From Holophagaceae bacterium (GTDB lineage: Bacteria > Acidobacteriota > Holophagae > Holophagales > Holophagaceae): a DNA stretch of 53,462 nucleotides. This document shows, piece after piece, positions 2,570 to 12,834 of this stretch. The translations under genes were made by a program, and so were the position numbers. Each line of letters begins with the position of its first letter. The first letter of the stretch is position 1. The stretch covers positions 1 to 53,462 of the forward strand of contig JAAXXS010000006.1 of the NCBI GenBank assembly GCA_013334395.1, written 5' to 3'. The notes beneath the pieces were generated by a model. That model saw only the letters and a list, made by a program, of their open reading frames with translations, searched no databases and was not told where the DNA came from.

Positions 2570-2929
2570 ATGCTCAACATCACCGACATCCGCATCACCA
2601 AGGTCGAAGGCGACGACAAGCTGCGGGCCTTCGCGGCCCTGGTCTTCGATGACTGCTTCCTGGTGGGTGACCTGCGCGTGGTGGAAGGCGAGGACGGGTT
2701 CTTCGTGGCCATGCCCAGCCGTCGCAAGCGGGATGGCAGCTTCAAGGACATCGCCTACCCGCTGAACAACCCCCTGCGCGAAGAGCTCGAGACCAAGGTC
2801 CTGCTGGCCTACGAGACCGCCACCGGCCGCCGCGCCATCAGCCGCATCGAGCGCGAAGAGACCAATGAGGTGCGCCCGGACCTCCTCGGCGTCGCGGAGT
2901 TCGGCTTCACGCCCAAGTCCGGCAGCTGA
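2570..2929 (+). CDS. spoVG: SpoVG-family septation / RNA-binding regulator
   Basis: A 119-residue protein matching the SpoVG family along its length: an N-terminal ITDIRITKV strand, FDDCFLVGDLRVVEG, and the strongly conserved VAMPSRRKRDGSFKDIAYPL segment at about residues 50-70. SpoVG acts as a small nucleic-acid-binding regulator; it affects septation in sporulating Firmicutes and is a global RNA/DNA-binding regulator in other phyla, so presence here does not imply sporulation. The C-terminal 35 residues extend beyond the core and are rich in charged residues. GGGA lies upstream of the ATG. It stands alone between the repeat spacer and tRNA-Gln. Confidence 0.92.
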   Translation: MLNITDIRITKVEGDDKLRAFAALVFDDCFLVGDLRVVEGEDGFFVAMPSRRKRDGSFKDIAYPLNNPLREELETKVLLAYETATGRRAISRIEREETNEVRPDLLGVAEFGFTPKSGS

Positions 2930-2999
2930 AGCGGTCGGCACCCCCGCCGCCCTGCCCCTTGGGCCGAACCCAGACCCACGCTATCCTTGCCATTCCGCC

Positions 3000-3074
3000 T
3001 GGGGAGTAGCCAAGTGGTAAGGCAGCAGGTTTTGATCCTGCGTACCGAGGGTTCGAATCCTTCCTCCCCAACCA
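3000..3074 (+). tRNA. tRNA-Gln (anticodon UUG), CCA encoded
   Basis: A complete cloverleaf can be folded by eye. The acceptor stem TGGGGAG (3000-3006) pairs with CTCCCCA (3064-3070), followed by discriminator A and an encoded CCA. The anticodon stem GCAGG/CCTGC encloses the loop TTTTGAT, giving anticodon TTG, which reads CAA and CAG. The T-loop GGTTCGAATCC is canonical. The gene is oriented with SpoVG. Its last 11 bases form the left part of a perfect palindrome (separate entry). Confidence 0.95.
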
Positions 3075-3111
3075 ATAGGGCCACCGCAGGGTGGCCCTAT
3101 TGGTTGGGGAG
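3064..3111. terminator. Long perfect palindrome overlapping the tRNA-Gln 3' end, probable terminator
   Basis: Two 22-base perfectly complementary arms (3064-3085 and 3090-3111) enclose a GCAG loop. The left arm begins inside the tRNA acceptor stem and runs through CCA. The core is GGGCCACCGCAGGGTGGCCC. Just beyond, the bases to about 3130 are a reverse-complement imperfect copy of the tRNA T-arm, so the right side looks like an inverted duplicate of the tRNA tail. There is no T-run. It lies between the converging tRNA-Gln and the histidine kinase and could stop transcription from both sides. The same core recurs at about 48037. Confidence 0.65.
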
Positions 3112-3178
3112 CACAGGAAGGACTCGAAGCCGCCGAGAGATGCCGCTGAACCCGGATGGGTCTTGCCGAGACGCCTCT

Positions 3179-6100
3179 TCACTCTGGCAGCAGTGAGGCC
3201 AGTTTCTGCCGGACCTCCGAAAGGTCGAACGGCTTTGGCAGGAGCACGATGCGGGCATGGGAAGCGACCAGGTCGATGGCCAGCTGGTCGGTCCGGCCCG
3301 TGGCCAGCAGGACGGGAACCCCTGGGCAGAGGTCCCGGAGCAGGGGCAGGGTCTCAGCCCCGCTGAGGCCTGGCATGTTCATATCCAGGATGACGGCATC
3401 AGGGCGGAGACCGCGCTCCACCAGGGCCAGCGCTTCCTGGCCTCTCCTCGCGGTTGAGACCCGGTGCCCCAGAACCACAAGCATGGGGGGGATGGAGCTC
3501 TGGATCAGCTCGTCGTCATCCACCAGCAGCAGATGGAGACTCTGGGATCCTGCTGTCGTTGGGCCAGTCGTGGCGCCGTGGCCGCTCTCCAGCTCTGGGT
3601 GGCTTGCCGGCAGGTGGATGAGCACGCAGGTGCCGGCTCCAAGTTCACTTTGGAGTTCAATGCGCCCGTGGTGGGCCTTCACCGTGCTGTAGGCCATGGA
3701 CAGGCCCAGCCCGGTCCCCTTCCCAGGATCCTTGGTTGTGAAGAAGGGGTCGAGCGCCCTCTCCAGGATTTCCGGACTCATGCCGCTCCCTGTGTCCTCC
3801 ACGCTTATGGCCACCCACGCATCCTCGTTCCGAGTCCGAAGGGTGAGCTTGCCTCCCCCGGGCATGGCATCGACAGCGTTGACGCAGAGGTTCATGAACA
3901 TGTGGGTCAGCGCCCCCGCGTCTCCTCGCACGGGCTGCAACTTCTCCACCAAGTCCAGCTCGAGATGCACCTTGGCGAGCGTCGTTCTCTCCAGGAGCCG
4001 GACCTCCTCCCGGAGCAGGGCATTCACGTCCAGCTGACGCTCCTCGGCCGGGCTCTGGCGTGCGAAGCTCAGCAGACTCTTGACCATCTTTCCACCGCGT
4101 TCACAGGCCTTCATGATGGTCTTGAAGGTCCGATGCGTTGCGGTGCCTTCGGGCTCAGCGTAGATGTGGGCCGAGGCCAGGCCGAGGATGGCGCCCAGCA
4201 CGTTGTTCATGTCATGGGCCACGCCCCCCGCCAGGCTGCCGAGGCTTTCCATCTTCTGGGACTGCAGCAGCTGGCTCTGAAGGCGCTTGCGTTCTTCCTC
4301 GGCCTGCCGGGCCTCGGTCACATCCAGGGCCACACCGTCGATGATGAGCTCGCCATCGGGTTCCTGGTGGCAGGAGGCGCGGTCCCGGAGCCAACGTTCC
4401 TCGCCGGAGGCGTGGTGGACCCGGTAGACAAGATCCAGGCTGGTGCATGTGGCCGAGGCCTTTGCGATGGCCTCGGCGACCCTGGGCTGATCCTCCGGGT
4501 GGATGGCGTCGTGCCAGCGCATGGGGTCCGCGAGCAGGTCCTCCGCAGTGAAGCCCAGGAGGTCGTAGACCCGGGGTGAGTAGTAGAGCCCGCCACGCCG
4601 ATCGGAGAAGCGATAGATCCCCACCGGAGAGTTCTCCGTGATGGAGGCGTAGCGGGCCTCGCTATCCCGGAGCCGCTCCTCGGCCAGGCGGCGCTCCGTG
4701 ATGTCCCGCAGGCTCACCACGGTGTGCACGCAGCCCTCCCGTTCATAGGAGGCGGCATGGATCTCCATGCGGAAGGTGCTGCCGTCCCGCCGCCGGGCCA
4801 TCACCTCGTAGTTGGAGGGCACGAACTCGCCCGCAGCTCGCGACCGCATGTTGGCATCGATTTGCGCGCGACTCTCGGGGGCGATGAGCTCCAGGAGGGG
4901 GGTTCCCAGGAGTTCCTCCGGCCGATCAAAGCCAAACATGGCCAGGTAGGCGGGGTTGACCATCTCGTGAAGTCCGTGCGCAGCCACGCCGATGGCATCC
5001 TGGGAGCTCTCGAAGATGGCACGCAGGCGGGCTTCACTTTCCTTGACGCTTTCCTGGGCCTGCAGCAGGGCCGAGATGTCCTGGGAGGTGGCCAGAAGGC
5101 ACAACCTCCCCTCGATCGTGATCAGCTCGGCGCTGTAGAGGCAGGTCACGACCCGGCCATGTTTGGCGTGCAGCTCCAAGGTCACATTGGAGATGCGCTG
5201 CTTGTTGCCCAGTTGCTCCAGGAGCCCCGCTCGATCTTCCCGGGTCATCCAGCCAAGGTCCACGGGAGAGTGGCCCAGGATCTCCTGTCGCTCGAAGCCC
5301 GAGACCCGCAGGAAGGCCTCGTTCACCTCCAGGTAGTCACCCGAGTCCAGCTCGCTCAGCGTCAACAGCATTGGCGCGTTGCGGAAAGCCAACGAGAACA
5401 TCTCCTGGCTCTCCCGAAGAGCGTCCTCGGCCCGCTTCCGCTCTGTGATGTCCTGGAAAGCGGCGACCAGACCCTCGGGAGCGCCCTCCTTCCCTGGGAT
5501 GAAACTGGCGGAAACCTCCACGTCAAAGGGTATGCCATCCCGTCTGATGGCTTTCATCTCCCCGGACCAGCCTAATTGGTGATTCAGGGCGGCTCTCACC
5601 TTTTCCGCCTGCTCCGGGGACTGCCAGAAGGAGGCCGAGGAGCGGCCAAGGACCTCTGCCGGATCCCGGTAGCCCCAGATCCGCAGGAAGGCCGGGTTGA
5701 TATAGGTCAAGCGTCCCTCGAGGTCCGCGATGGCGATGCCGGTGAGACTGGCGTCCAGGGCCCGGTCCTTGGCACGAAGCGCCTCCTCGGAAGCCTTCTG
5801 CTCCGTGATGTCCCTCGCTGCCGCATAGATGACGTTTCCTTTGGCCGTGCAGCGCCATTCGATCCAGCGCCAGGATCCATCTCGGTGGCGGTAGCGGTTC
5901 ACGAAGTTGATGAGGGGCTTTTGCGCGACAAGGGTGTCGACGGCGGCAAGCGTCTCCTGAAGGTCATCCGGATGGACAAACTGAAGGAACGGCGCCCCCT
6001 CCAACTCGGACAGGGGATGGCCCAGTACGGCTGTCCACGAGGGATTGAGCTTCCGGAAAAAGCCTTCCGTGTCGGCGATGGCGAAGAGGTCCAGCGCATT

Positions 6101-6679
6101 GTTGAAGTAGCTGTCCAGCTCCTCGCTCTTCCTGCCCAGCGCCTCCTCAGCCGCCTCGCGCGCCCGCCGGCGAAGCTCATTGCTGAGCATGAGCGCCGTG
6201 TGGTGGAAAAAGACCGGCAGATGCACTCCCAGGGAGTGGCTGCTCAGGTGGAGGTTCTCAAGGGTGACGATCCCGATGAGTTCCTCTTCCACCAGGAGCG
6301 GGTAGCCCCATGAACACACGACCGGCACCACGCCATCCAGGAGCCGGCCCGCCTCAAAGGGGGACTCCTGCTGGATGAAGGTCCTCTGCTCTGCCACCCG
6401 CCGGGCCAAGGGATCGTCGATCTCCGCAAGAATCTGATTGCTGCCCAGGAAGTCGAGGTAGTGGAGGTCCCCGGCCTCCCAGTAGTAGAGCTTGATGTTC
6501 GTGCCCCCGATGGTGTCCATGATGCTGCGCAGGACCTCGCGCAGCATGTCGTCGATCTTGGCCAGCGGGTTCAGCCGCTCGATCAGCTGCAGCACCAGGT
6601 GGAGGGTGGCCTTCTCCCCCGCCACCTGCTGGAGGCGCGCTTGGAGCCGGCTGAGCTCAGGGTTTTCCGGGCCGGTCAT
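3179..6679 (-). CDS. GAF/multi-PAS hybrid sensor histidine kinase with receiver domain
   Basis: A 1166-residue cytoplasmic hybrid kinase with no membrane segment. Domain order: N-terminal coiled region and GAF-like domain (about 1-170), five PAS units (about 190-295, 300-415, 420-535, 545-665, 670-790; each ends in a DITE- or DVTE-type linker), HisKA with phospho-acceptor His in GGVAHDMNN (about 815), HATPase with [10 protein letters not shown] and GTGLGLSMA, then a receiver (about 1045-1160) with LLVDDDE and phospho-acceptor Asp in VILDMNMPG. It is the last gene of the corrinoid operon; its ATG overlaps the DUF1638 stop by four bases. No DNA-binding output partner is nearby, so phosphotransfer must go elsewhere. 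A ligand or redox signal tied to methyl transfer is inferred only from gene order. Confidence 0.93.
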
Positions 6680-7281
6680 CGGGAGTCCCCCCTGGGCTGC
6701 CCTTGCTGCTCAAGCGCCTGCGCCAGCACCTCCTCGAGGTGCCTGAGGTCGGCGTCCATCCACAGGAGAGGCAGGTCTACGAACCGCGCAGCGGCCTCCG
6801 CCGCCGCGGTGAACTCCCCGGAACAGGGCGTTCGGATGGCGATCATGCAGTGGTGGCTGCTGTGGAAGATCTCCCTCACCACCGTCAGGTTCTTGCCGAA
6901 GGCCGCCGTGATCATGGGTTCCCACGTAAGTGCCCAGTCCTCGAGGAGGAAGTAGGCCCCCTTGCCCAGCTCCTCCATGAACCGGTCATAGCCGATCAGC
7001 TGAACGATACAGTTCTGCCCAGGCGTGCGATGGGTCTGATGCTTCTCGAGGATCCTCTCCATCAGCGGATGGCAGGCGCCGTAGAGGACGATGGGGTCCA
7101 AGCCCCTGCCCTCGTCGTCAGTCAGGGCCGATTCGAGCTTCGCGGACAGATGGTCCAGGTAGTTGTGCAGGGCTGAGGCGAGGTAGTGGGTCTCCAGCTG
7201 CCAGCCGTTCTTCGCGATGAGGGCGTCCACCTCCCTGTGGAGGATGCCGCAGCCCACGAGAACGCGCGTGCGGGCCGTCAT
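6676..7281 (-). CDS. DUF1638 family protein of corrinoid methyl-transfer operon
   Basis: A 201-residue soluble protein. Recognised as DUF1638 from the start RVLVGCGILHREVDALI, the GACHPLME segment (about residue 70) and the HSSHHCMIA/WMDADLRH pattern. Conserved Cys and His residues suggest a metal or corrinoid role, but the biochemical function of the family is not established to my knowledge. Such genes commonly sit beside MtaA-like methyltransferases and corrinoid proteins. The ATG at 7281 is chosen because it overlaps the stop of the upstream methyltransferase as ATGA; the frame stays open further upstream, but that would run into the neighbouring coding sequence. Its own stop overlaps the kinase start in the same way. 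Confidence 0.8.
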   Translation of the reverse strand: MTARTRVLVGCGILHREVDALIAKNGWQLETHYLASALHNYLDHLSAKLESALTDDEGRGLDPIVLYGACHPLMERILEKHQTHRTPGQNCIVQLIGYDRFMEELGKGAYFLLEDWALTWEPMITAAFGKNLTVVREIFHSSHHCMIAIRTPCSGEFTAAAEAAARFVDLPLLWMDADLRHLEEVLAQALEQQGQPRGDSR

Positions 7282-8306
7282 GAGTAGCTCCCAAAGCCGA
7301 GAGCCTCCTCGACCATCGCACGGATGTTGGCCTCGGGAATGGCCTGGGGCATCACCCCTGTGCCGAACAGGAACCGCCCGCCCCCCATGCCGATGCCGCA
7401 CAGGCGCCTCACTTCGGCGCGAGTCTGCTCCGGCGTCCAGTGGATCATCTGGATGTCATCGATCACGCCACAGGTCAGTCCCTTCTGGCCGATGGTGGCC
7501 TTGGCCTCCGCAAGATCAGCCAGGGGACTGATGTAGTAGGCACCGATGCCGAGCTCCTGCTGCACCTGCTCGATGACCGCATTGAAGGGCGCCATCCCGC
7601 AGTAGTAGACGATCCCTTCCACGCCGCCGGGCAGCAGGTCCACCTTCATCCAGGGGAGGATGAGCTCCCGGAAGCGCTTCATGCCCACGAAGGCCGGGCA
7701 CCCGAAGGGCGTCGAGTAAATGAGGACATTGGCCCCCGCAGCCCGGTAGGCGGCCACCTCCCTCTGGAAGAACAGAGCGCACTTGCGGAGCAGCTCGTCT
7801 CGCAGGTCCTCGGGCCCCATGAGCAACAGCTGCATCCAGGCTTCCATGCCCATGAGCATCGCGGGTAGCGCCGTGGAGGACGTGATGTAGGCGCAGATGG
7901 GATGCGTGGCTCCGACTTCCCGCTTCAGGATTCGCAGGCACTGGGCGGTCTCGCTCCAGGCTGGATGGGAGCTGATGTCCTCCGGTATCTCAAGCCTGGC
8001 GATGTCGTCCAGGGACTTGATCACGAAGTCGGCCACATTGGGGGCACCTTCCTCGGAGTACAGGATCTCCTGGCAACCCAGCAGCTCCGCCTCCTTGCCC
8101 ACGTAGAGGAGGCTCCAGACGTTGTCGTGGCCATAGCGCTCGCGCATCCGGAGCTGCCCCTCGGCCACATGCTCGCCCTTGGCGTAGTAGTCCTTCTGCG
8201 TCAGGCCCAGCTCGCGGGCTCCCTGGTCGAGCAGGTTGCAGAAGACCGGGATCCGCGGCGCCGGCTGTCCGGTGGCCGCGGCGGTGAGGATCTCCAGGGG
8301 CGTCAT
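7278..8306 (-). CDS. Uroporphyrinogen decarboxylase-family methyltransferase (MtaA/CmuA-like)
   Basis: A 342-residue (beta/alpha)8-type protein of the UroD family, in the branch that moves methyl groups between corrinoid proteins and thiols or other acceptors (MtaA, MtbA, CmuA) rather than in heme synthesis. Family features include the N-terminal RIPVFCNLLDQGARELG segment, the GANVLIYSTPFG strand and the C-terminal NIRAMVEEAL helix. Known methyltransferases of this type hold zinc through H-x-C plus a later C. Here the corresponding sites read Y234-Y-C236 and G-T316-G, so two of three ligands appear lost, which makes the acceptor uncertain. It overlaps the corrinoid-protein gene and the DUF1638 gene by four bases each. 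Confidence 0.85.
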   Translation of the reverse strand: MTPLEILTAAATGQPAPRIPVFCNLLDQGARELGLTQKDYYAKGEHVAEGQLRMRERYGHDNVWSLLYVGKEAELLGCQEILYSEEGAPNVADFVIKSLDDIARLEIPEDISSHPAWSETAQCLRILKREVGATHPICAYITSSTALPAMLMGMEAWMQLLLMGPEDLRDELLRKCALFFQREVAAYRAAGANVLIYSTPFGCPAFVGMKRFRELILPWMKVDLLPGGVEGIVYYCGMAPFNAVIEQVQQELGIGAYYISPLADLAEAKATIGQKGLTCGVIDDIQMIHWTPEQTRAEVRRLCGIGMGGGRFLFGTGVMPQAIPEANIRAMVEEALGFGSYS

Positions 8307-8971
8307 GGCTTCACCTCCCGGATCAGGTCGGTGATCACCTTCCCGGCCGAGATGCCGTCCGCCGCCCAGGCATCGGCCCCAATTTTTCGGTAGAGTTCCT
8401 CGTCGAAGCGGAAGGGTGCTCCGCCCACGATGACCCTGAACTGCCCCTCCAACCCCTGACTCTGGATAAGCTTGCGCACCTTCATGCAGCCGTTCTCGCC
8501 CGTCGCGGTGTGCACCATCATCGAGGAGATGGCGATGACCTGGGCCTCATGCTTGAGGGCGGCCTCCACGAACTGCTCGGCTGAGACATTCACGCCGAGG
8601 TCGATGACATCGACCATGAGCGACTTCAGGCACCCCGAGACGATGCGCTTCCCAAGGGAGTGGAGGTCCCCGCTGGAGGTCCCGATCACCACCCTGCCAA
8701 GGACCTCCGGCGGCTGGCTGAACCGCTCCAGCATCCACTCGGTGACCTCGGAGGCGATCTGGGCGGTCATGAAGTGCTGGGCAAGATTGGCGTCCGGATC
8801 CTTGGTGATGGCGGACATGGTGTCCTCCGTGGCCGGCACGACCAGCTCGAACACGATCTGCTCGGGCGTCATCCCCTCTTCGAGGGCCGCCCTCACCGCC
8901 GCGAAGGCGGCCGCCTTGTCGGTGTCGAAAACGGCCTCCATGTAGGTCCTGAACAGTTCGGCACGGCTCAT
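8303..8971 (-). CDS. Corrinoid (cobalamin-binding) protein, MtaC/MtbC type
   Basis: A 222-residue two-domain protein: a helical cap domain (about 1-90) followed by a Rossmann-like B12-binding domain (about 92-222). The lower-axial-ligand motif is present as D102-L-H104-S-L-G107, with the later SSMM and VIVGGAPF segments that line the nucleotide tail. It should carry a methyl group on cobalt between a donor methyltransferase and the UroD-family enzyme encoded next. The start ATG at 8971 overlaps the activator stop codon (ATGA); earlier in-frame starts would lie inside that gene. No substrate-specific methyltransferase I (MtaB, MttB or MtvB type) is in the window, so the methyl donor is unknown. 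Confidence 0.92.
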   Translation of the reverse strand: MSRAELFRTYMEAVFDTDKAAAFAAVRAALEEGMTPEQIVFELVVPATEDTMSAITKDPDANLAQHFMTAQIASEVTEWMLERFSQPPEVLGRVVIGTSSGDLHSLGKRIVSGCLKSLMVDVIDLGVNVSAEQFVEAALKHEAQVIAISSMMVHTATGENGCMKVRKLIQSQGLEGQFRVIVGGAPFRFDEELYRKIGADAWAADGISAGKVITDLIREVKP

Positions 8972-10599
8972 GGGGAGACCCTCCGGCAGGATTCGAGTGG
9001 AATGGGTCCGAGGCGCAGGTGGGCCATGTATCGGTCCTCCCAGTCCGGGATCAAGGACAGATTCACAAGTCGGGCCCGGCTGGCGACCGCAGCCAGGACC
9101 GCGTTGGCATCGGTGGCAAGGAGGGCCCACTCACAGCCGACCAAAGCCGCATGACCATGCAGCTCAATGCGCTGCTCCTCCACCTGCGGCAAGAGGCCCA
9201 CGGCCTGGGCATGGCCGACATGGAGGCTCCGCCCGAAGGCGCCACAGACGCAGAGGCGCCGGAGGTCCCGCCAACCTAGACCGGCCAGCTCCAGCAGCTC
9301 CTCCATGGCGGAGGCTTGGGCTGCCTTGGCCCGCTGGAAGGTGTCCACATCCCCCGCGCTGAGGGCGCTCTGCGGAATGGCCGGATCCAGCGGGTGGCCC
9401 CCGGGCCCGGCTGGCCGGGAGAAGCGACCCGAGGGTTTGAGGAGGCCTGCTCCTAGGAGAAGCGCCACCGCATCGACGAGGCCGGAGCCGCAGAAGCCCC
9501 GCGCTGGCAGCCCGCCGAAAGTCTCGCAGATGAAGCCCTCGCCTTCCGGACAGGGGAGCACATGGGCGATGGCGCCCGGTCCGGCGGGGGCACCGAAGCG
9601 GAGTCCGGCTCCCTCGAAGGCCGGGCCGCCGGGCACCGAGGAGACGTGCAGCACGGACCCATCCCAGAGGGCCAGCTCCGTGTTGGTCCCCACGTCCACC
9701 AGCAGGGAGCCAGGCGGTCCTTCCAGAAGGCCGGTTCCCACCACGGCGGCCAGCAGATCCGATCCCACGAAGCCCGCCAGGGGAGCGGGAAGCAGGATTT
9801 CCGCCCGGCCGAGGTGCCACTCCGCCTGCCAGGCGGAGGGATCCATGGGGCTCACTTCGATGGCGCGCTGCCACTGCGTGGGATCGAGAAGAGCCGGCAG
9901 CCCCGCTCCCGTCAGCAAAGCCAGCATGGCCGTATTGCCCACCACCACGATCCGGCCGAGCTCCGCTGGCGGGACCCCGGAGTCCCCCAGCTCCTGCGCC
10001 AGGATGTCGCCGATGGCCTGCAGGATGGCCCCGCGCGCGAGGTCGGTGAGCTCTGGCCTGCGATGGGGATAGTTCACGGCCGTGCTCACCCGGTTCAGCA
10101 CATCGGCCCCGAAGACCTCCTGGGGGTTCGGGCCGCTGCGGGAGGCGATCCGTCGCCCCTGCGCAAGGTCCCAGAGTGAGACCCGGATTCGGGTTGTGCC
10201 CAGGTCCACGGCTACCCCATAGCGGGCGGCCCCCGCCGCGGATCGCAGCCCCGGCCCAGGGGGCAGCTCCTCCAGCGGGATGCTCGCCCACGACGAAGCC
10301 TTCTCGCCCTGCTCTACTTCAATTTCCGCGTCGCCCCCTACCCTGAGCTGGCAGGCCAGACGCAGCCCGCGGGCCAGCTCCTCACCGGACAGCTTCCGAC
10401 ATTCCGCTGCCGTCGGAGGGTTGGTCTGGCCGCTCACCACGCGGACCACGCAGGCGCCGCACGTGCCCACCCCTCCGCAGGCTGTGGGAACCCGGGCCTC
10501 CGTCTCGGCCAGGGCCTCGCGAACCGACTGCGCACCGTCAACGGTCAGCCAATGCTGACCCTTGGAAGTGCCTACGCGCAGATTCGCCATCAGAGACAT
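8968..10599 (-). CDS. Reductive activator of corrinoid proteins: 2Fe-2S ferredoxin plus ASKHA (DUF4445) domain
   Basis: A 543-residue protein of the RACo type, which uses ATP and an iron-sulfur cluster to reduce accidentally oxidised Co(II) corrinoid back to Co(I). The N-terminal plant-type ferredoxin domain has C41-x5-C47-x2-C50 and C83. A linker leads to an actin-like fold beginning with GVAVDLGTTRIRVSLWD (about residue 130), with a second phosphate-binding motif, SLLVDVGTNTELALWDG. The C-terminal region is the DUF4445 domain with CGAFGRSLHVGHA. It is the first gene of the five-gene unit and is preceded by an AT-rich leader with a palindrome. A second ATG nine bases downstream is an alternative start. 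Confidence 0.9.
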   Translation of the reverse strand: MSLMANLRVGTSKGQHWLTVDGAQSVREALAETEARVPTACGGVGTCGACVVRVVSGQTNPPTAAECRKLSGEELARGLRLACQLRVGGDAEIEVEQGEKASSWASIPLEELPPGPGLRSAAGAARYGVAVDLGTTRIRVSLWDLAQGRRIASRSGPNPQEVFGADVLNRVSTAVNYPHRRPELTDLARGAILQAIGDILAQELGDSGVPPAELGRIVVVGNTAMLALLTGAGLPALLDPTQWQRAIEVSPMDPSAWQAEWHLGRAEILLPAPLAGFVGSDLLAAVVGTGLLEGPPGSLLVDVGTNTELALWDGSVLHVSSVPGGPAFEGAGLRFGAPAGPGAIAHVLPCPEGEGFICETFGGLPARGFCGSGLVDAVALLLGAGLLKPSGRFSRPAGPGGHPLDPAIPQSALSAGDVDTFQRAKAAQASAMEELLELAGLGWRDLRRLCVCGAFGRSLHVGHAQAVGLLPQVEEQRIELHGHAALVGCEWALLATDANAVLAAVASRARLVNLSLIPDWEDRYMAHLRLGPIPLESCRRVSP

Positions 10600-10621
10600 C
10601 CCACTGTCGGAGTCAGAGCAT

Positions 10622-10636
10622 GCGACATCATGTCGC
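10622..10636. promoter_or_regulatory. Perfect 15-base palindrome upstream of the corrinoid operon, candidate operator
   Basis: GCGACATCATGTCGC is a perfect palindrome with seven-base arms around one central base. It sits 23 bases ahead of the activator start codon in an AT-rich leader. The position is right for an operator or a leader hairpin of the corrinoid operon. No regulator gene lies next to it, and it matches no operator family that I recognise. Confidence 0.45.
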
Positions 10637-10860
10637 TTAATTACTCCTCGTCCGCAGCAGAGTGAGGCCCAAGTTATGGAGTGGAATTCAGAGCGATTTT
10701 TCGAATAAAGGAATTTATGATCCTATTAATATGCATTACCTTAATACGGCGCACCTGAAACAATGCGGATTCAAACCATCGATACACGCCTGAGTATTGG
10801 TTCATCAGTTGCGATGAACTATCTCTTTAATCAAGGTATATCAAGAAATTCCATCCTTCC

Positions 10861-11040
10861 TCACAACCATGAAAGCGCCTGGCGAACGGCCAAGCGCTTG
10901 TCTTGCCCGCCGAAGAAGGTCAGCTTGTCGGCCTCAGGCTTGGACAGGAGCACCGCCTGCAGGTCGGGTGCCAGGTTAGTGAGGGCATGCACCTGGGCCA
11001 GAGCTCGGGCATTGGCGTGCTCTAGAGACGAGGGCGCGAC
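10861..11040 (-). pseudogene. Remnant of an unidentified gene (C-terminal about 59 codons)
   Basis: On the minus strand the frame ending with TGA at 10861 reads like genuine protein: NLAPDLQAVLLSKPEADKL followed by TFFGGQDKRLAVRQALSWL and stop. Third-position G+C and residue content match real genes here. However, the frame is closed by a TGA at 11041-11043 and has no start codon, so only the tail of a former gene remains. I do not recognise the family. It lies directly behind the 5'-nucleotidase gene on the same strand but in another frame, and next to the AT-rich spacer, so it may mark an old insertion or deletion. Confidence 0.4.
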
Positions 11041-11055
11041 TCATGCGGCCCGCAT

Positions 11056-12834
11056 CTAGCTGAAGGGGTGCAGGAACCCGGCAGCCCCCGGGTTCCCGGC
11101 CTCTGCCCTGCGGGAGAGCAGGCCCATGCTGATCGCGGATGACAGGATGGTGATGCGGGGCTCTGTGGGATTCCTGACCGTGACCAGCGTTTTCAGGTGG
11201 TCCCTGAGGGCGTCGCTGTCGATGATCCCGGTGTCGCTCCGGAAATCCGTGGCATTCCGGAGGGTGGCAAAGCCGTCGCCGCCCCCGGCCACGAAGGCGT
11301 TTACCACCACGCGGTAGGTGGCGTCGGAGCGCACTGGCTGGTAGGCGCCGCTGGCATCCTTGATGGCTAGGCTCGCCACCCGGAGGCCCTTGGCCGCCGC
11401 CGGCTGGACACTGAAGCTGACGCCGCCGACGTAGGGCATGAGGGGTGGCACCTGCTGGGGATACTTGGTCAGCAGGAAGTCGATGCCTTCCTCTAGGGCC
11501 GTCCTCAGTTCCACCCCGGTCAGATCCACCAGTACCAGGCTGTTGGCGAAGGGCATGACCTCCAGCACATCGCCCACGGAGATGGTGCCGGCCGCGAGGT
11601 CCTTGCGCACCCCGCCCTGGTTCAGGATGGCCACCTGCGCGTGCGGCACCGCGGCCAGCATGGAGTCCGCCGCCAGCGGCCCCGGGCCAGAGTTCAGGCC
11701 GCGCGGCAGGGCCTCGGCCGCAGTGGCAACGGAGACGGAACGGAACGCGGCCACCTGCTCGGTGTAGGGCGCGAGCTGCGCGGAGAGGCCCGGGTCCTCG
11801 GCCACGATGCGGGCCAGGCCGGACTGCGTCAGGGTCTGGACGAGCTCCCGGTAGGGCTCGGTGCCGGGCAGCACCATGACGCCGCTGCGGGTGAAGGTGT
11901 CGCCCACGGGCAGGATGGGGTTGGCGCGCCAGGAGAGCACCTGGCCCGCAGGGTCGAACCGCACCTGCAGCCGCCCGACCACCTGGCCCCACTGCCAGGC
12001 CTGGGTCACCAGGACCCGGGCACCGTCCGGGGCCAGGACCACGGTGGGAGTGAGGCCCTCGGGGGTCAGGCCGAGGGTGGCCAGGGCCGACCCCTCCCCC
12101 AGCAGGGTGTGGCTGTGCCCGCCCACGATGATGTCCACCCCTGAGATCTGGGCAGCCAGGGCCAGATCCTGGGCGTAGCCGAGATGGGACAGCAGGACGA
12201 TCTTGTCGATCCCCATGGCGCCGAGGTCGGCGACCTGCTGGTGGACACTGGCCACAGCGTCCTTGAACACGGCCTTGCCCACATCGAGGGTGGTCTGGGG
12301 CGTGGTCTCGGTGGTGACGCCGAGGATGGCGACCCGCTCGCCGTTCACCCGCTTCACCCGGAACGGACTCACCAGGGGGGCCAGGCTGGGCTCCGCCGAG
12401 AAGTCGATGTTGGCGGAGAGCCAGGGGAAGCGGCTCTGACCGATCCAACCCGGGATGGGCTTGAGGCCCCGGTCGAACTCGTGGTTGCCGAAGGTCAGGG
12501 CATCCACGCCAAGACGGTTGAGGAAGTCGTATTCCACGGCGCCGCTGAACAAGGTGAAGTAGAGGGTTCCCTGCACGGCGTCGCCGCCATGCAGCAGCAG
12601 CAGGGCGGGATCCTCGGCGCGCATCTGGTCGAGGGTGGTCTTGATCCGCGCCATGCCCCCCATGGGCACGGTGGTCTTCACGCCGCCGAGGGTCAGGTCC
12701 ACGGGCACGGACTCCAGGTGGGAGTGGGTGTCATTCAGGTGGGCCAGGGTCAGCTCGAAGGTGGAGGGGTGGCTGCCGCCACAGGCGAAGAGCAGGAAGG
12801 CTGCCGCGCAGACAAGAACCTTGACCGGATGCAT
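11056..12834 (-). CDS. 5'-nucleotidase / UshA-family metallophosphoesterase lipoprotein
   Basis: A 592-residue exported enzyme that hydrolyses nucleotides or related phosphate esters outside the inner membrane. The start at 12834 gives a lipoprotein signal peptide (MHPVKVLVCAAAFLLFACGG, lipobox LFAC). The N-terminal metallophosphoesterase domain has the metal motifs LAHLNDTHSH, HGGDAVQG, TFGNHEFDRG and VGGHSHTLLG. The C-terminal half is the 5'-nucleotidase substrate domain, including AILNQGGVRKDL and FVAGGGDGFATL. An earlier in-frame start would add eight residues and spoil the signal peptide. It follows the S10 carboxypeptidase by 42 bases on the same strand, so the two are probably co-transcribed as scavenging enzymes. 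Confidence 0.9.
   Translation of the reverse strand: MHPVKVLVCAAAFLLFACGGSHPSTFELTLAHLNDTHSHLESVPVDLTLGGVKTTVPMGGMARIKTTLDQMRAEDPALLLLHGGDAVQGTLYFTLFSGAVEYDFLNRLGVDALTFGNHEFDRGLKPIPGWIGQSRFPWLSANIDFSAEPSLAPLVSPFRVKRVNGERVAILGVTTETTPQTTLDVGKAVFKDAVASVHQQVADLGAMGIDKIVLLSHLGYAQDLALAAQISGVDIIVGGHSHTLLGEGSALATLGLTPEGLTPTVVLAPDGARVLVTQAWQWGQVVGRLQVRFDPAGQVLSWRANPILPVGDTFTRSGVMVLPGTEPYRELVQTLTQSGLARIVAEDPGLSAQLAPYTEQVAAFRSVSVATAAEALPRGLNSGPGPLAADSMLAAVPHAQVAILNQGGVRKDLAAGTISVGDVLEVMPFANSLVLVDLTGVELRTALEEGIDFLLTKYPQQVPPLMPYVGGVSFSVQPAAAKGLRVASLAIKDASGAYQPVRSDATYRVVVNAFVAGGGDGFATLRNATDFRSDTGIIDSDALRDHLKTLVTVRNPTEPRITILSSAISMGLLSRRAEAGNPGAAGFLHPFS

What the first reader, a model, noticed from the sequence alone, without database searches (positions are those of the whole stretch)
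3179..10599. Five-gene corrinoid methyl-transfer operon hard-wired to a giant sensor kinase, every junction ATGA
Activator, corrinoid protein, UroD-family methyltransferase, DUF1638 protein and a 1166-residue GAF/5xPAS hybrid kinase are joined by four successive 4-base ATGA overlaps. Such tight coupling of a sensor kinase to corrinoid enzymes suggests they act as one unit. The corrinoid module may feed a methyl or redox signal to the kinase, or the kinase may report the methyl donor. No substrate-specific methyltransferase I is present. Holophaga is known for O-demethylation and methyl transfer to sulfide, so a link to methoxylated or methylated compounds is plausible, but a sensing role is my inference.
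Basis: partly seen in the sequence, partly recalled or inferred. Interest (0 to 1): 0.78.

Follow-up and report, generated by a model that had tools for sequence, protein, structure and literature searches.

The report
Vitamin-B12 methyl-transfer module feeding sensor kinases
Four genes that look like a vitamin-B12-dependent methyl-transfer enzyme travel together, in fixed order and across distant bacteria, with a signalling protein that always carries the same front end, which suggests that the enzyme set works as a chemical sensor rather than as a metabolic pathway.

Summary
In detail: five minus-strand genes (RACo activase, corrinoid protein, UroD-like protein, DUF1638, 1166-aa hybrid kinase), with all four junctions ATGA. 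A DUF1638-only search found 40 loci in Alpha-, Beta-, Gammaproteobacteria, Magnetococcales and Holophagaceae; in 39 of 39 testable loci the next gene begins with the same ~185-aa GAF-fold domain. The reciprocal search, with that domain alone in 398 genomes, found 9 new loci, all behind the same four genes. The flanks are not conserved. The rest of the signalling protein is swapped: histidine kinase in 33 of 40, GGDEF-EAL in 3, PAS scaffold in 4. In 12 methanotroph loci the next gene is REC-PAS-GGDEF-EAL. The GAF domain co-evolves with the enzymes (r=0.76), the kinase core much less (0.37). In related cassettes DUF1638 is fused to the kinase (8 cases). RACo is single-copy and confined to the cassette in 16 of 16 genomes. 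The UroD protein lacks two of three zinc ligands of MtaA. Best reading: an enzyme-coupled corrinoid sensor for two-component and c-di-GMP signalling. The ligand (methyl donor or cobalt redox state) is unknown. I found no published description.

The parts
8968..10599 (-). RACo-type reductive activase of corrinoid proteins (2Fe-2S ferredoxin domain + RACo middle + ASKHA C-terminal domain), 543 aa
   Evidence: Pfam Fer2, Raco_middle, RACo_C_ter above cut-off; the only RACo_C_ter gene in this genome
8303..8971 (-). Corrinoid (B12-binding) methyltransferase protein, 222 aa, cobalt-ligand motif DLHSLG at residues 102-107
   Evidence: PF02310 77.8 bits; motif invariant in the alignment and present in all full-length group-1 relatives
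7278..8306 (-). UroD-fold, MtaA/CmuA-like methyltransferase, 342 aa; zinc-ligand positions of MtaA read Y-x-C ... T instead of H-x-C ... C
   Evidence: PF01208 132 bits; alignment to 4ay7; Tyr 35/35, Cys 34/35, Thr 27 / Asn 8 of 35
6676..7281 (-). DUF1638 protein, 201 aa; conserved Cys11, Cys70, Cys91, His39, His140, His143, Cys153
   Evidence: PF07796 81.3 bits, cut-off 27; conservation; AF2 pLDDT 92.5, no solved relative
6095..6679 (-). Kinase residues 1-195: helix + GAF-fold domain, the conserved partner domain of the cassette
   Evidence: Found in 39/39 testable loci, alignment, fold, reciprocal search
3179..6094 (-).
   Evidence: Pfam; kinase core tracks the cassette only weakly
10600..10691 (-). 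Leader upstream of the activase; DNA similarity to the nearest relative (L031) stops here
   Evidence: blastn window 3264-10691 vs L031, 92.6% identity, no flank similarity

Best explanation
The five genes are one dedicated sensory system. The UroD-like protein, the corrinoid protein and DUF1638 form an enzyme-like input module, kept in the active cobalt(I) state by its own RACo activase. The state of that module (most likely methyl-cobalt loading from an unidentified methylated small molecule, alternatively the cobalt oxidation state) is read through DUF1638 and the conserved N-terminal GAF domain of the last protein, and is converted into phosphotransfer or, in many relatives, directly into cyclic-di-GMP turnover. 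Shown: gene order, two-way linkage, co-evolution of the GAF domain with the enzymes, swapping of outputs, natural DUF1638-kinase fusions, single-copy dedicated RACo. Inferred: physical contact, direction of signal flow (enzyme to kinase), and the nature of the ligand.
For: (1) DUF1638-only search: 40 loci; the GAF-headed protein is next in 39/39 testable ones across Alpha/Beta/Gamma/Magnetococcales/Holophagaceae. (2) Reciprocal search with the GAF domain only: 11 of 398 evenly drawn genomes, the 9 new ones all directly behind RACo-Corr-UroD-DUF1638. (3) Outputs are swapped behind a constant GAF: 33 HK, 3 GGDEF-EAL-CZB, 4 PAS scaffolds next to separate kinases; 12 Methylococcales loci add an overlapping REC-PAS-GGDEF-EAL gene. 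(4) On the same 19 loci, GAF distances follow cassette distances with r=0.76, the kinase core with r=0.37 (bootstrap difference 0.09-0.68). (5) DUF1638 fused to histidine kinases in related cassettes: L006, L128, L129, L169-L173. (6) RACo single copy, only in the cassette, in 16/16 genomes; DUF1638 single copy in 15/16; MetH reactivation domain present separately in 15/16, so the cassette is not needed for methionine synthase. (7) Flanks differ; no transporter, MtmB/MttB-type gene or folate gene is conserved beside it; the nearest relative shares 7.4 kb at 92.6% and nothing outside.
Against: No biochemical data. Co-conservation in an operon could also reflect regulation of the enzymes by the kinase. 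Loci are close relatives (DUF1638 60-94% identical), so they are not 39 independent events. Three genomes carry an extra GAF-headed kinase without the enzymes nearby (L106-L108), although each also has the cassette. RACo implies real catalytic turnover, which a metabolic enzyme would need as well. DUF1638 elsewhere is tied to methionine synthesis (PMC5764234).
Confidence: 0.62

Rival explanations
1. The module senses redox or oxygen, not a methyl donor: the corrinoid's Co(I)/Co(II)/Co(III) state, reset by ATP-driven RACo, is what the GAF domain reads; the UroD-like protein has lost methyl transfer.
For: UroD protein lacks two of three MtaA zinc ligands. Sister cassettes without any RACo in the genome keep the corrinoid protein and the kinase (12/12 genomes). 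Hosts come from groups with many micro-oxic or sediment dwellers (host names; ecology from general knowledge).
Against: The UroD active-site region is strongly conserved within the family (YYCG, PFG), which suggests it still does chemistry or binds a ligand.
Confidence: 0.25
2. A small methyl-transfer metabolic pathway whose expression is controlled by a co-transcribed kinase; signal flows from kinase to enzymes.
For: Known precedent of methyltransferase-associated kinases in Methanosarcina (MsmS, RdmS; PMC11619418, PMC11784639). RACo, corrinoid and UroD are bona fide enzyme families.
Against: No conserved DNA-binding regulator, transporter or further pathway gene was seen in the neighbours sampled; outputs include c-di-GMP enzymes instead of transcription factors; GAF co-evolves with the enzymes while the kinase core does so much less; DUF1638-kinase fusions.
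Confidence: 0.13
3. A general corrinoid-reactivation set (RACo + DUF1638) serving methionine synthase or other B12 enzymes, as in Phaeobacter.
For: DUF1638 and a RamA-like protein support methionine synthase in P. inhibens (PMC5764234) and are induced on N-osmolytes in R. pomeroyi (PMC12478193).
Against: 15/16 cassette genomes have MetH with its own Met_synt_B12 domain, and all Holophagaceae genomes of the sister cassettes tested lack RACo.
Confidence: 0.05
4. Light sensing through photolysis of an alkyl-corrinoid, as in CarH.
For: B12-binding domain with the base-off motif; CarH is a precedent (own knowledge).
Against: CarH model match is weak (19 bits against 400); activase and methyltransferase would be superfluous.
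Confidence: 0.03

Closest known systems
Methanosarcina acetivorans methyltransferase-associated kinases MsmS and RdmS (heme/thiol, PMC11619418, PMC11784639)
   Same: Sensor kinases with GAF/PAS-type domains genetically associated with corrinoid methyltransferases.
   Different: MsmS/RdmS lack an H-box (PMC11784639), while the window kinase has an H-box-like HisKA; no five-gene RACo-Corr-UroD-DUF1638-kinase cassette, DUF1638-kinase fusion or c-di-GMP output is described for them in the passages read.
Phaeobacter/Ruegeria methionine synthase and glycine betaine module (DUF1638 + RamA-like + MtgC; PMC5764234, PMC12478193)
   Same: DUF1638, RACo/RamA-like activase and a short corrinoid protein work together.
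   Different: There the acceptor is homocysteine or folate and no kinase is linked; here a UroD-like protein and a kinase are linked and MetH has its own reactivation domain.
MtaA/MtbA/CmuA methylcobamide:thiol methyltransferases (PDB 4ay7)
   Same: UroD fold, alignment over nearly the whole length.
   Different: Zinc ligands H-x-C...C replaced by Y-x-C...T/N; 61.7 bits against a cut-off of 235.4.
CarH and other B12-binding sensors (own knowledge)
   Same: A corrinoid-binding domain used as a sensor.
   Different: CarH is a one-protein DNA-binding photoreceptor; here a multi-enzyme set feeds kinases and c-di-GMP enzymes.
Hybrid histidine kinases with PAS/GAF input (two-component systems)
   Same: HisKA, HATPase_c, REC architecture.
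   Different: The input is a dedicated corrinoid enzyme cassette, with a constant GAF domain in front of swappable outputs.

Membership tests
RACo/RamA corrinoid activases | Ferredoxin domain plus RACo middle and ASKHA C-terminal domains | tested here: met
   Pfam matches above cut-off; TIGR04270 subfamily cut-off not reached (82.8 of 500), so not the methylamine RamA subfamily
Methyltransferase corrinoid proteins (MtaC/MtbC/MtgC-like) | B12-binding domain with D-x-H-x-x-G cobalt ligand | tested here: met
   PF02310, DLHSLG invariant
Named MtaC/MtbC/MtgC subfamilies | Score above the curated subfamily cut-off | tested here: not met
   TIGR02370 89.9 of 215.3, MtgC 90 of 370, MtbC 78 of 350
MtaA/CmuA methyltransferases | Zinc site H-x-C...C | tested here: not met
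   First ligand Tyr in 35/35, middle Cys kept in 34/35, last ligand Thr 27 / Asn 8 of 35
MtaA/CmuA methyltransferases | TIGR01463 curated cut-off | tested here: not met
   61.7 of 235.4 bits
DUF1638 (PF07796) | Pfam gathering score | tested here: met
   81.3 bits against a cut-off of 27
Hybrid histidine kinase | HisKA with H-box, HATPase_c, receiver | tested here: met
   HATPase_c and REC above cut-off; HisKA 24.1, just under its 26.9 cut-off; His822 nearly invariant in the family alignment
GAF domain | GAF fold | tested here: met
   AF2 model and Foldseek top hits are GAF domains; no sequence-level Pfam match in the window protein
MsmS/RdmS-type kinases | No H-box | tested here: not met
   The window kinase has an H-box-like AHDMNN sequence within a HisKA match; the type lacks the H-box
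MsmS/RdmS-type kinases | Heme or thiol redox switch | not testable with these tools
   Needs purified protein
Methionine-synthase reactivation module (DUF1638 + RamA-like) | Needed because MetH lacks its own reactivation domain | tested here: not met
   Met_synt_B12 domain present in 15/16 cassette genomes, this one included

The most novel reading that the evidence does not exclude
A categorically new kind of sensor: a complete ATP-reactivated corrinoid methyltransferase acts not to make a product but to report a methylated compound, with methyl-cobalt occupancy as the signal passed to interchangeable kinase or c-di-GMP outputs.
Probability: 0.38. Interest if true: 0.92.

Novelty: new variant of a known kind. 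Interest (0 to 1): 0.75.

Why it matters
If right, it adds an enzyme-coupled corrinoid input to two-component and cyclic-di-GMP signalling, gives DUF1638 a second role as a kinase input domain (so far known only from methionine synthesis and osmolyte demethylation, where its function is unassigned), and makes a ligand search feasible in a culturable host, Methylomonas sp. LW13 (L042). It would also warn that RACo/corrinoid/UroD gene clusters in methanotrophs and Rhodocyclaceae should not be annotated automatically as methyl-compound degradation.

Tried and rejected
All-against-all ORF comparison for conserved flanking genes was swamped by shadow ORFs of GC-rich genes; outside the core no ORF was shared widely, and the neighbours were then sampled by Pfam. 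DUF1638 has no solved structure or convincing fold neighbour. A suspected in-frame TGA in MetH turned out to be the normal stop. A possible ORF remnant upstream of the activase contained stops and was dropped. The sigma-70 promoter scan found none in 2900-11100 and no terminator excess, which neither supports nor excludes an internal kinase promoter. Literature searches for the cassette gave nothing relevant; the library holds open-access papers only.
Full report
OBSERVATION. The five genes and four ATGA overlaps are exactly as described. Pfam identifies Fer2 + RACo, B12-binding, URO-D, DUF1638, and PAS/HisKA/HATPase/REC. No NCBIfam equivalog is reached, so none of the four enzyme genes belongs to a named substrate-specific subfamily. 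The window is the whole contig C191 of a 3.16-Mb, 96% complete Holophagaceae-type genome (family name from the 94% identical relative L031).

CONSERVATION. A search seeded only with the DUF1638 protein returned 40 loci. The order RACo-Corr-UroD-DUF1638-signalling protein recurs in them, wherever the contig is long enough, in Methylococcales, Rhodocyclaceae/Azonexaceae, Gallionellaceae, Thiobacillus, Terasakiella, Magnetococcales and Holophagaceae. The signalling protein varies from about 400 to over 1300 aa across the whole set, but residues ~7-185 are the same domain in 39 of 39 testable loci (L069 ends at a contig edge). Invariant residues include G58, G59, D89, W124, P127, L128 and G136, with H160 nearly so. 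AlphaFold gives a GAF fold with a leading helix (pLDDT 87.8; Foldseek).

RECIPROCAL TEST. A profile of that domain alone was run on 398 genomes drawn evenly from the phylum of Methylomonas LW13. It hit 11; the nine new ones all lie directly behind RACo-Corr-UroD-DUF1638. In the same 398 genomes DUF1638 occurs in 57, and most of the other loci examined carry a corrinoid protein near DUF1638 but no kinase of this type. The sensory context is therefore a specific subset of DUF1638 use, not its default. In Acidobacteriota the domain is in 2 of 297 genomes, and the cassette of this type (group 1) is in 3 of 93 genomes of the window's class. DNA similarity to L031 covers only the cassette (window 3264-10691, 92.6%). 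Both fit transfer as a block.

INPUT MODULE, OUTPUT MODULE. Of 40 GAF-headed proteins 33 are histidine kinases, 3 (L054, L062, L064) are PAS-GGDEF-EAL-CZB proteins, and 4 (L114-L117) end in a coiled coil after PAS domains and have separate kinases encoded downstream. In 12 Methylococcales loci an overlapping or abutting downstream gene encodes REC-PAS-GGDEF-EAL, and an orphan GAF-kinase (L108) is followed by REC-HD. On the same 19 loci, pairwise distances of the GAF domain track those of the enzymes (r=0.76), those of the kinase core of the same polypeptides only weakly (r=0.37; bootstrap 95% of the difference 0.09-0.68). A front end that co-evolves with the enzymes while the back end is exchanged is what a sensory input module predicts.

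FUSIONS AND SISTER SYSTEMS. Holophagaceae carry a second, diverged cassette (group 2), Corr-UroD-DUF1638-GAF/PAS-kinase, with HHGG in place of YYCG in most of the UroD proteins. In 12 of 12 genomes with the sister groups 2 or 3 there is no RACo at all. In a third group, DUF1638 is the N-terminal domain of a histidine kinase encoded straight after Corr-UroD: L128 and L129 (Holophagaceae) and L169, L170, L171 and L173 (Pseudomonadota sample); L172 has the fusion at a contig start. L006 is an in-frame DUF1638-GAF-PAS-kinase fusion of the second group. MAG frameshift artefacts cannot be excluded for a single case, but eight cases in two groups argue for real fusions.

DEDICATED, NOT HOUSEKEEPING. 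In 16 of 16 cassette genomes RACo is single-copy and sits in the cassette, and in 15 of 16 DUF1638 is single-copy. MetH carries its own reactivation domain in 15 of 16. This argues against the role known for DUF1638/RamA-like proteins in Phaeobacter (PMC5764234) and Ruegeria (PMC12478193).

CHEMISTRY. The corrinoid protein keeps the cobalt-ligating DxHxxG motif. The UroD protein aligns with MtaA (4ay7) but has Tyr for the zinc His and Thr/Asn for the second zinc Cys, so it is unlikely to activate a thiol the MtaA way. The YYCG and PFG motifs are strongly conserved, so it probably binds or demethylates something. DUF1638 has invariant Cys70, Cys91, His140 and His143 and nearly invariant Cys11, His39 and Cys153, suggestive of a metal site; this is inference.

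MECHANISM. Most likely: unknown methyl donor -> UroD-like protein -> methyl-corrinoid -> DUF1638/GAF contact -> phosphotransfer or c-di-GMP; RACo rescues Co(II). The competing reading is that cobalt oxidation state is the signal. The data do not decide between them. In the window the partner of the C-terminal receiver is unknown.

LIMITS. All evidence is genomic. Loci are phylogenetically related. Gene calls in flanks are mechanical. The literature library is open-access only; absence of a paper there is not proof of novelty.

Noticed in passing
L006, L128, L129, L169-L173: DUF1638 as the N-terminal input domain of histidine kinases next to corrinoid and UroD genes, in Holophagaceae and in the Pseudomonadota sample.
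   Followed up: partly
L118-L124 and genomes G014, G018, G027, G059, G075, G077, G079: Diverged Corr-UroD-DUF1638-kinase cassettes in genomes with no RACo gene at all; how the corrinoid is kept active there is unclear.
   Followed up: partly
L125:7820-9058, L127:7288-8583: DUF1638 in ~410-430 aa proteins without a recognisable kinase domain, after Corr-UroD; the C-terminal half has no Pfam match.
   Followed up: no
window 3000-3130: tRNA-Gln gene just beyond the kinase 3' end, followed by an inverted imperfect copy of its 3' end; could mark an insertion boundary, but the relatives L031 and L132 have no tRNA beside the cassette.
   Followed up: partly
L035:6975-8015: An RRXRR/HNH endonuclease gene inserted between RACo and the corrinoid gene, showing that the RACo junction tolerates insertion.
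   Followed up: no
L106-L108: Extra GAF-headed kinases away from the enzymes in genomes that also carry the cassette; possibly second outputs of the same input.
   Followed up: partly
window 10600-10900: AT-rich stretch (GC about 0.53 against 0.65-0.70 around it) upstream of the activase.
   Followed up: no
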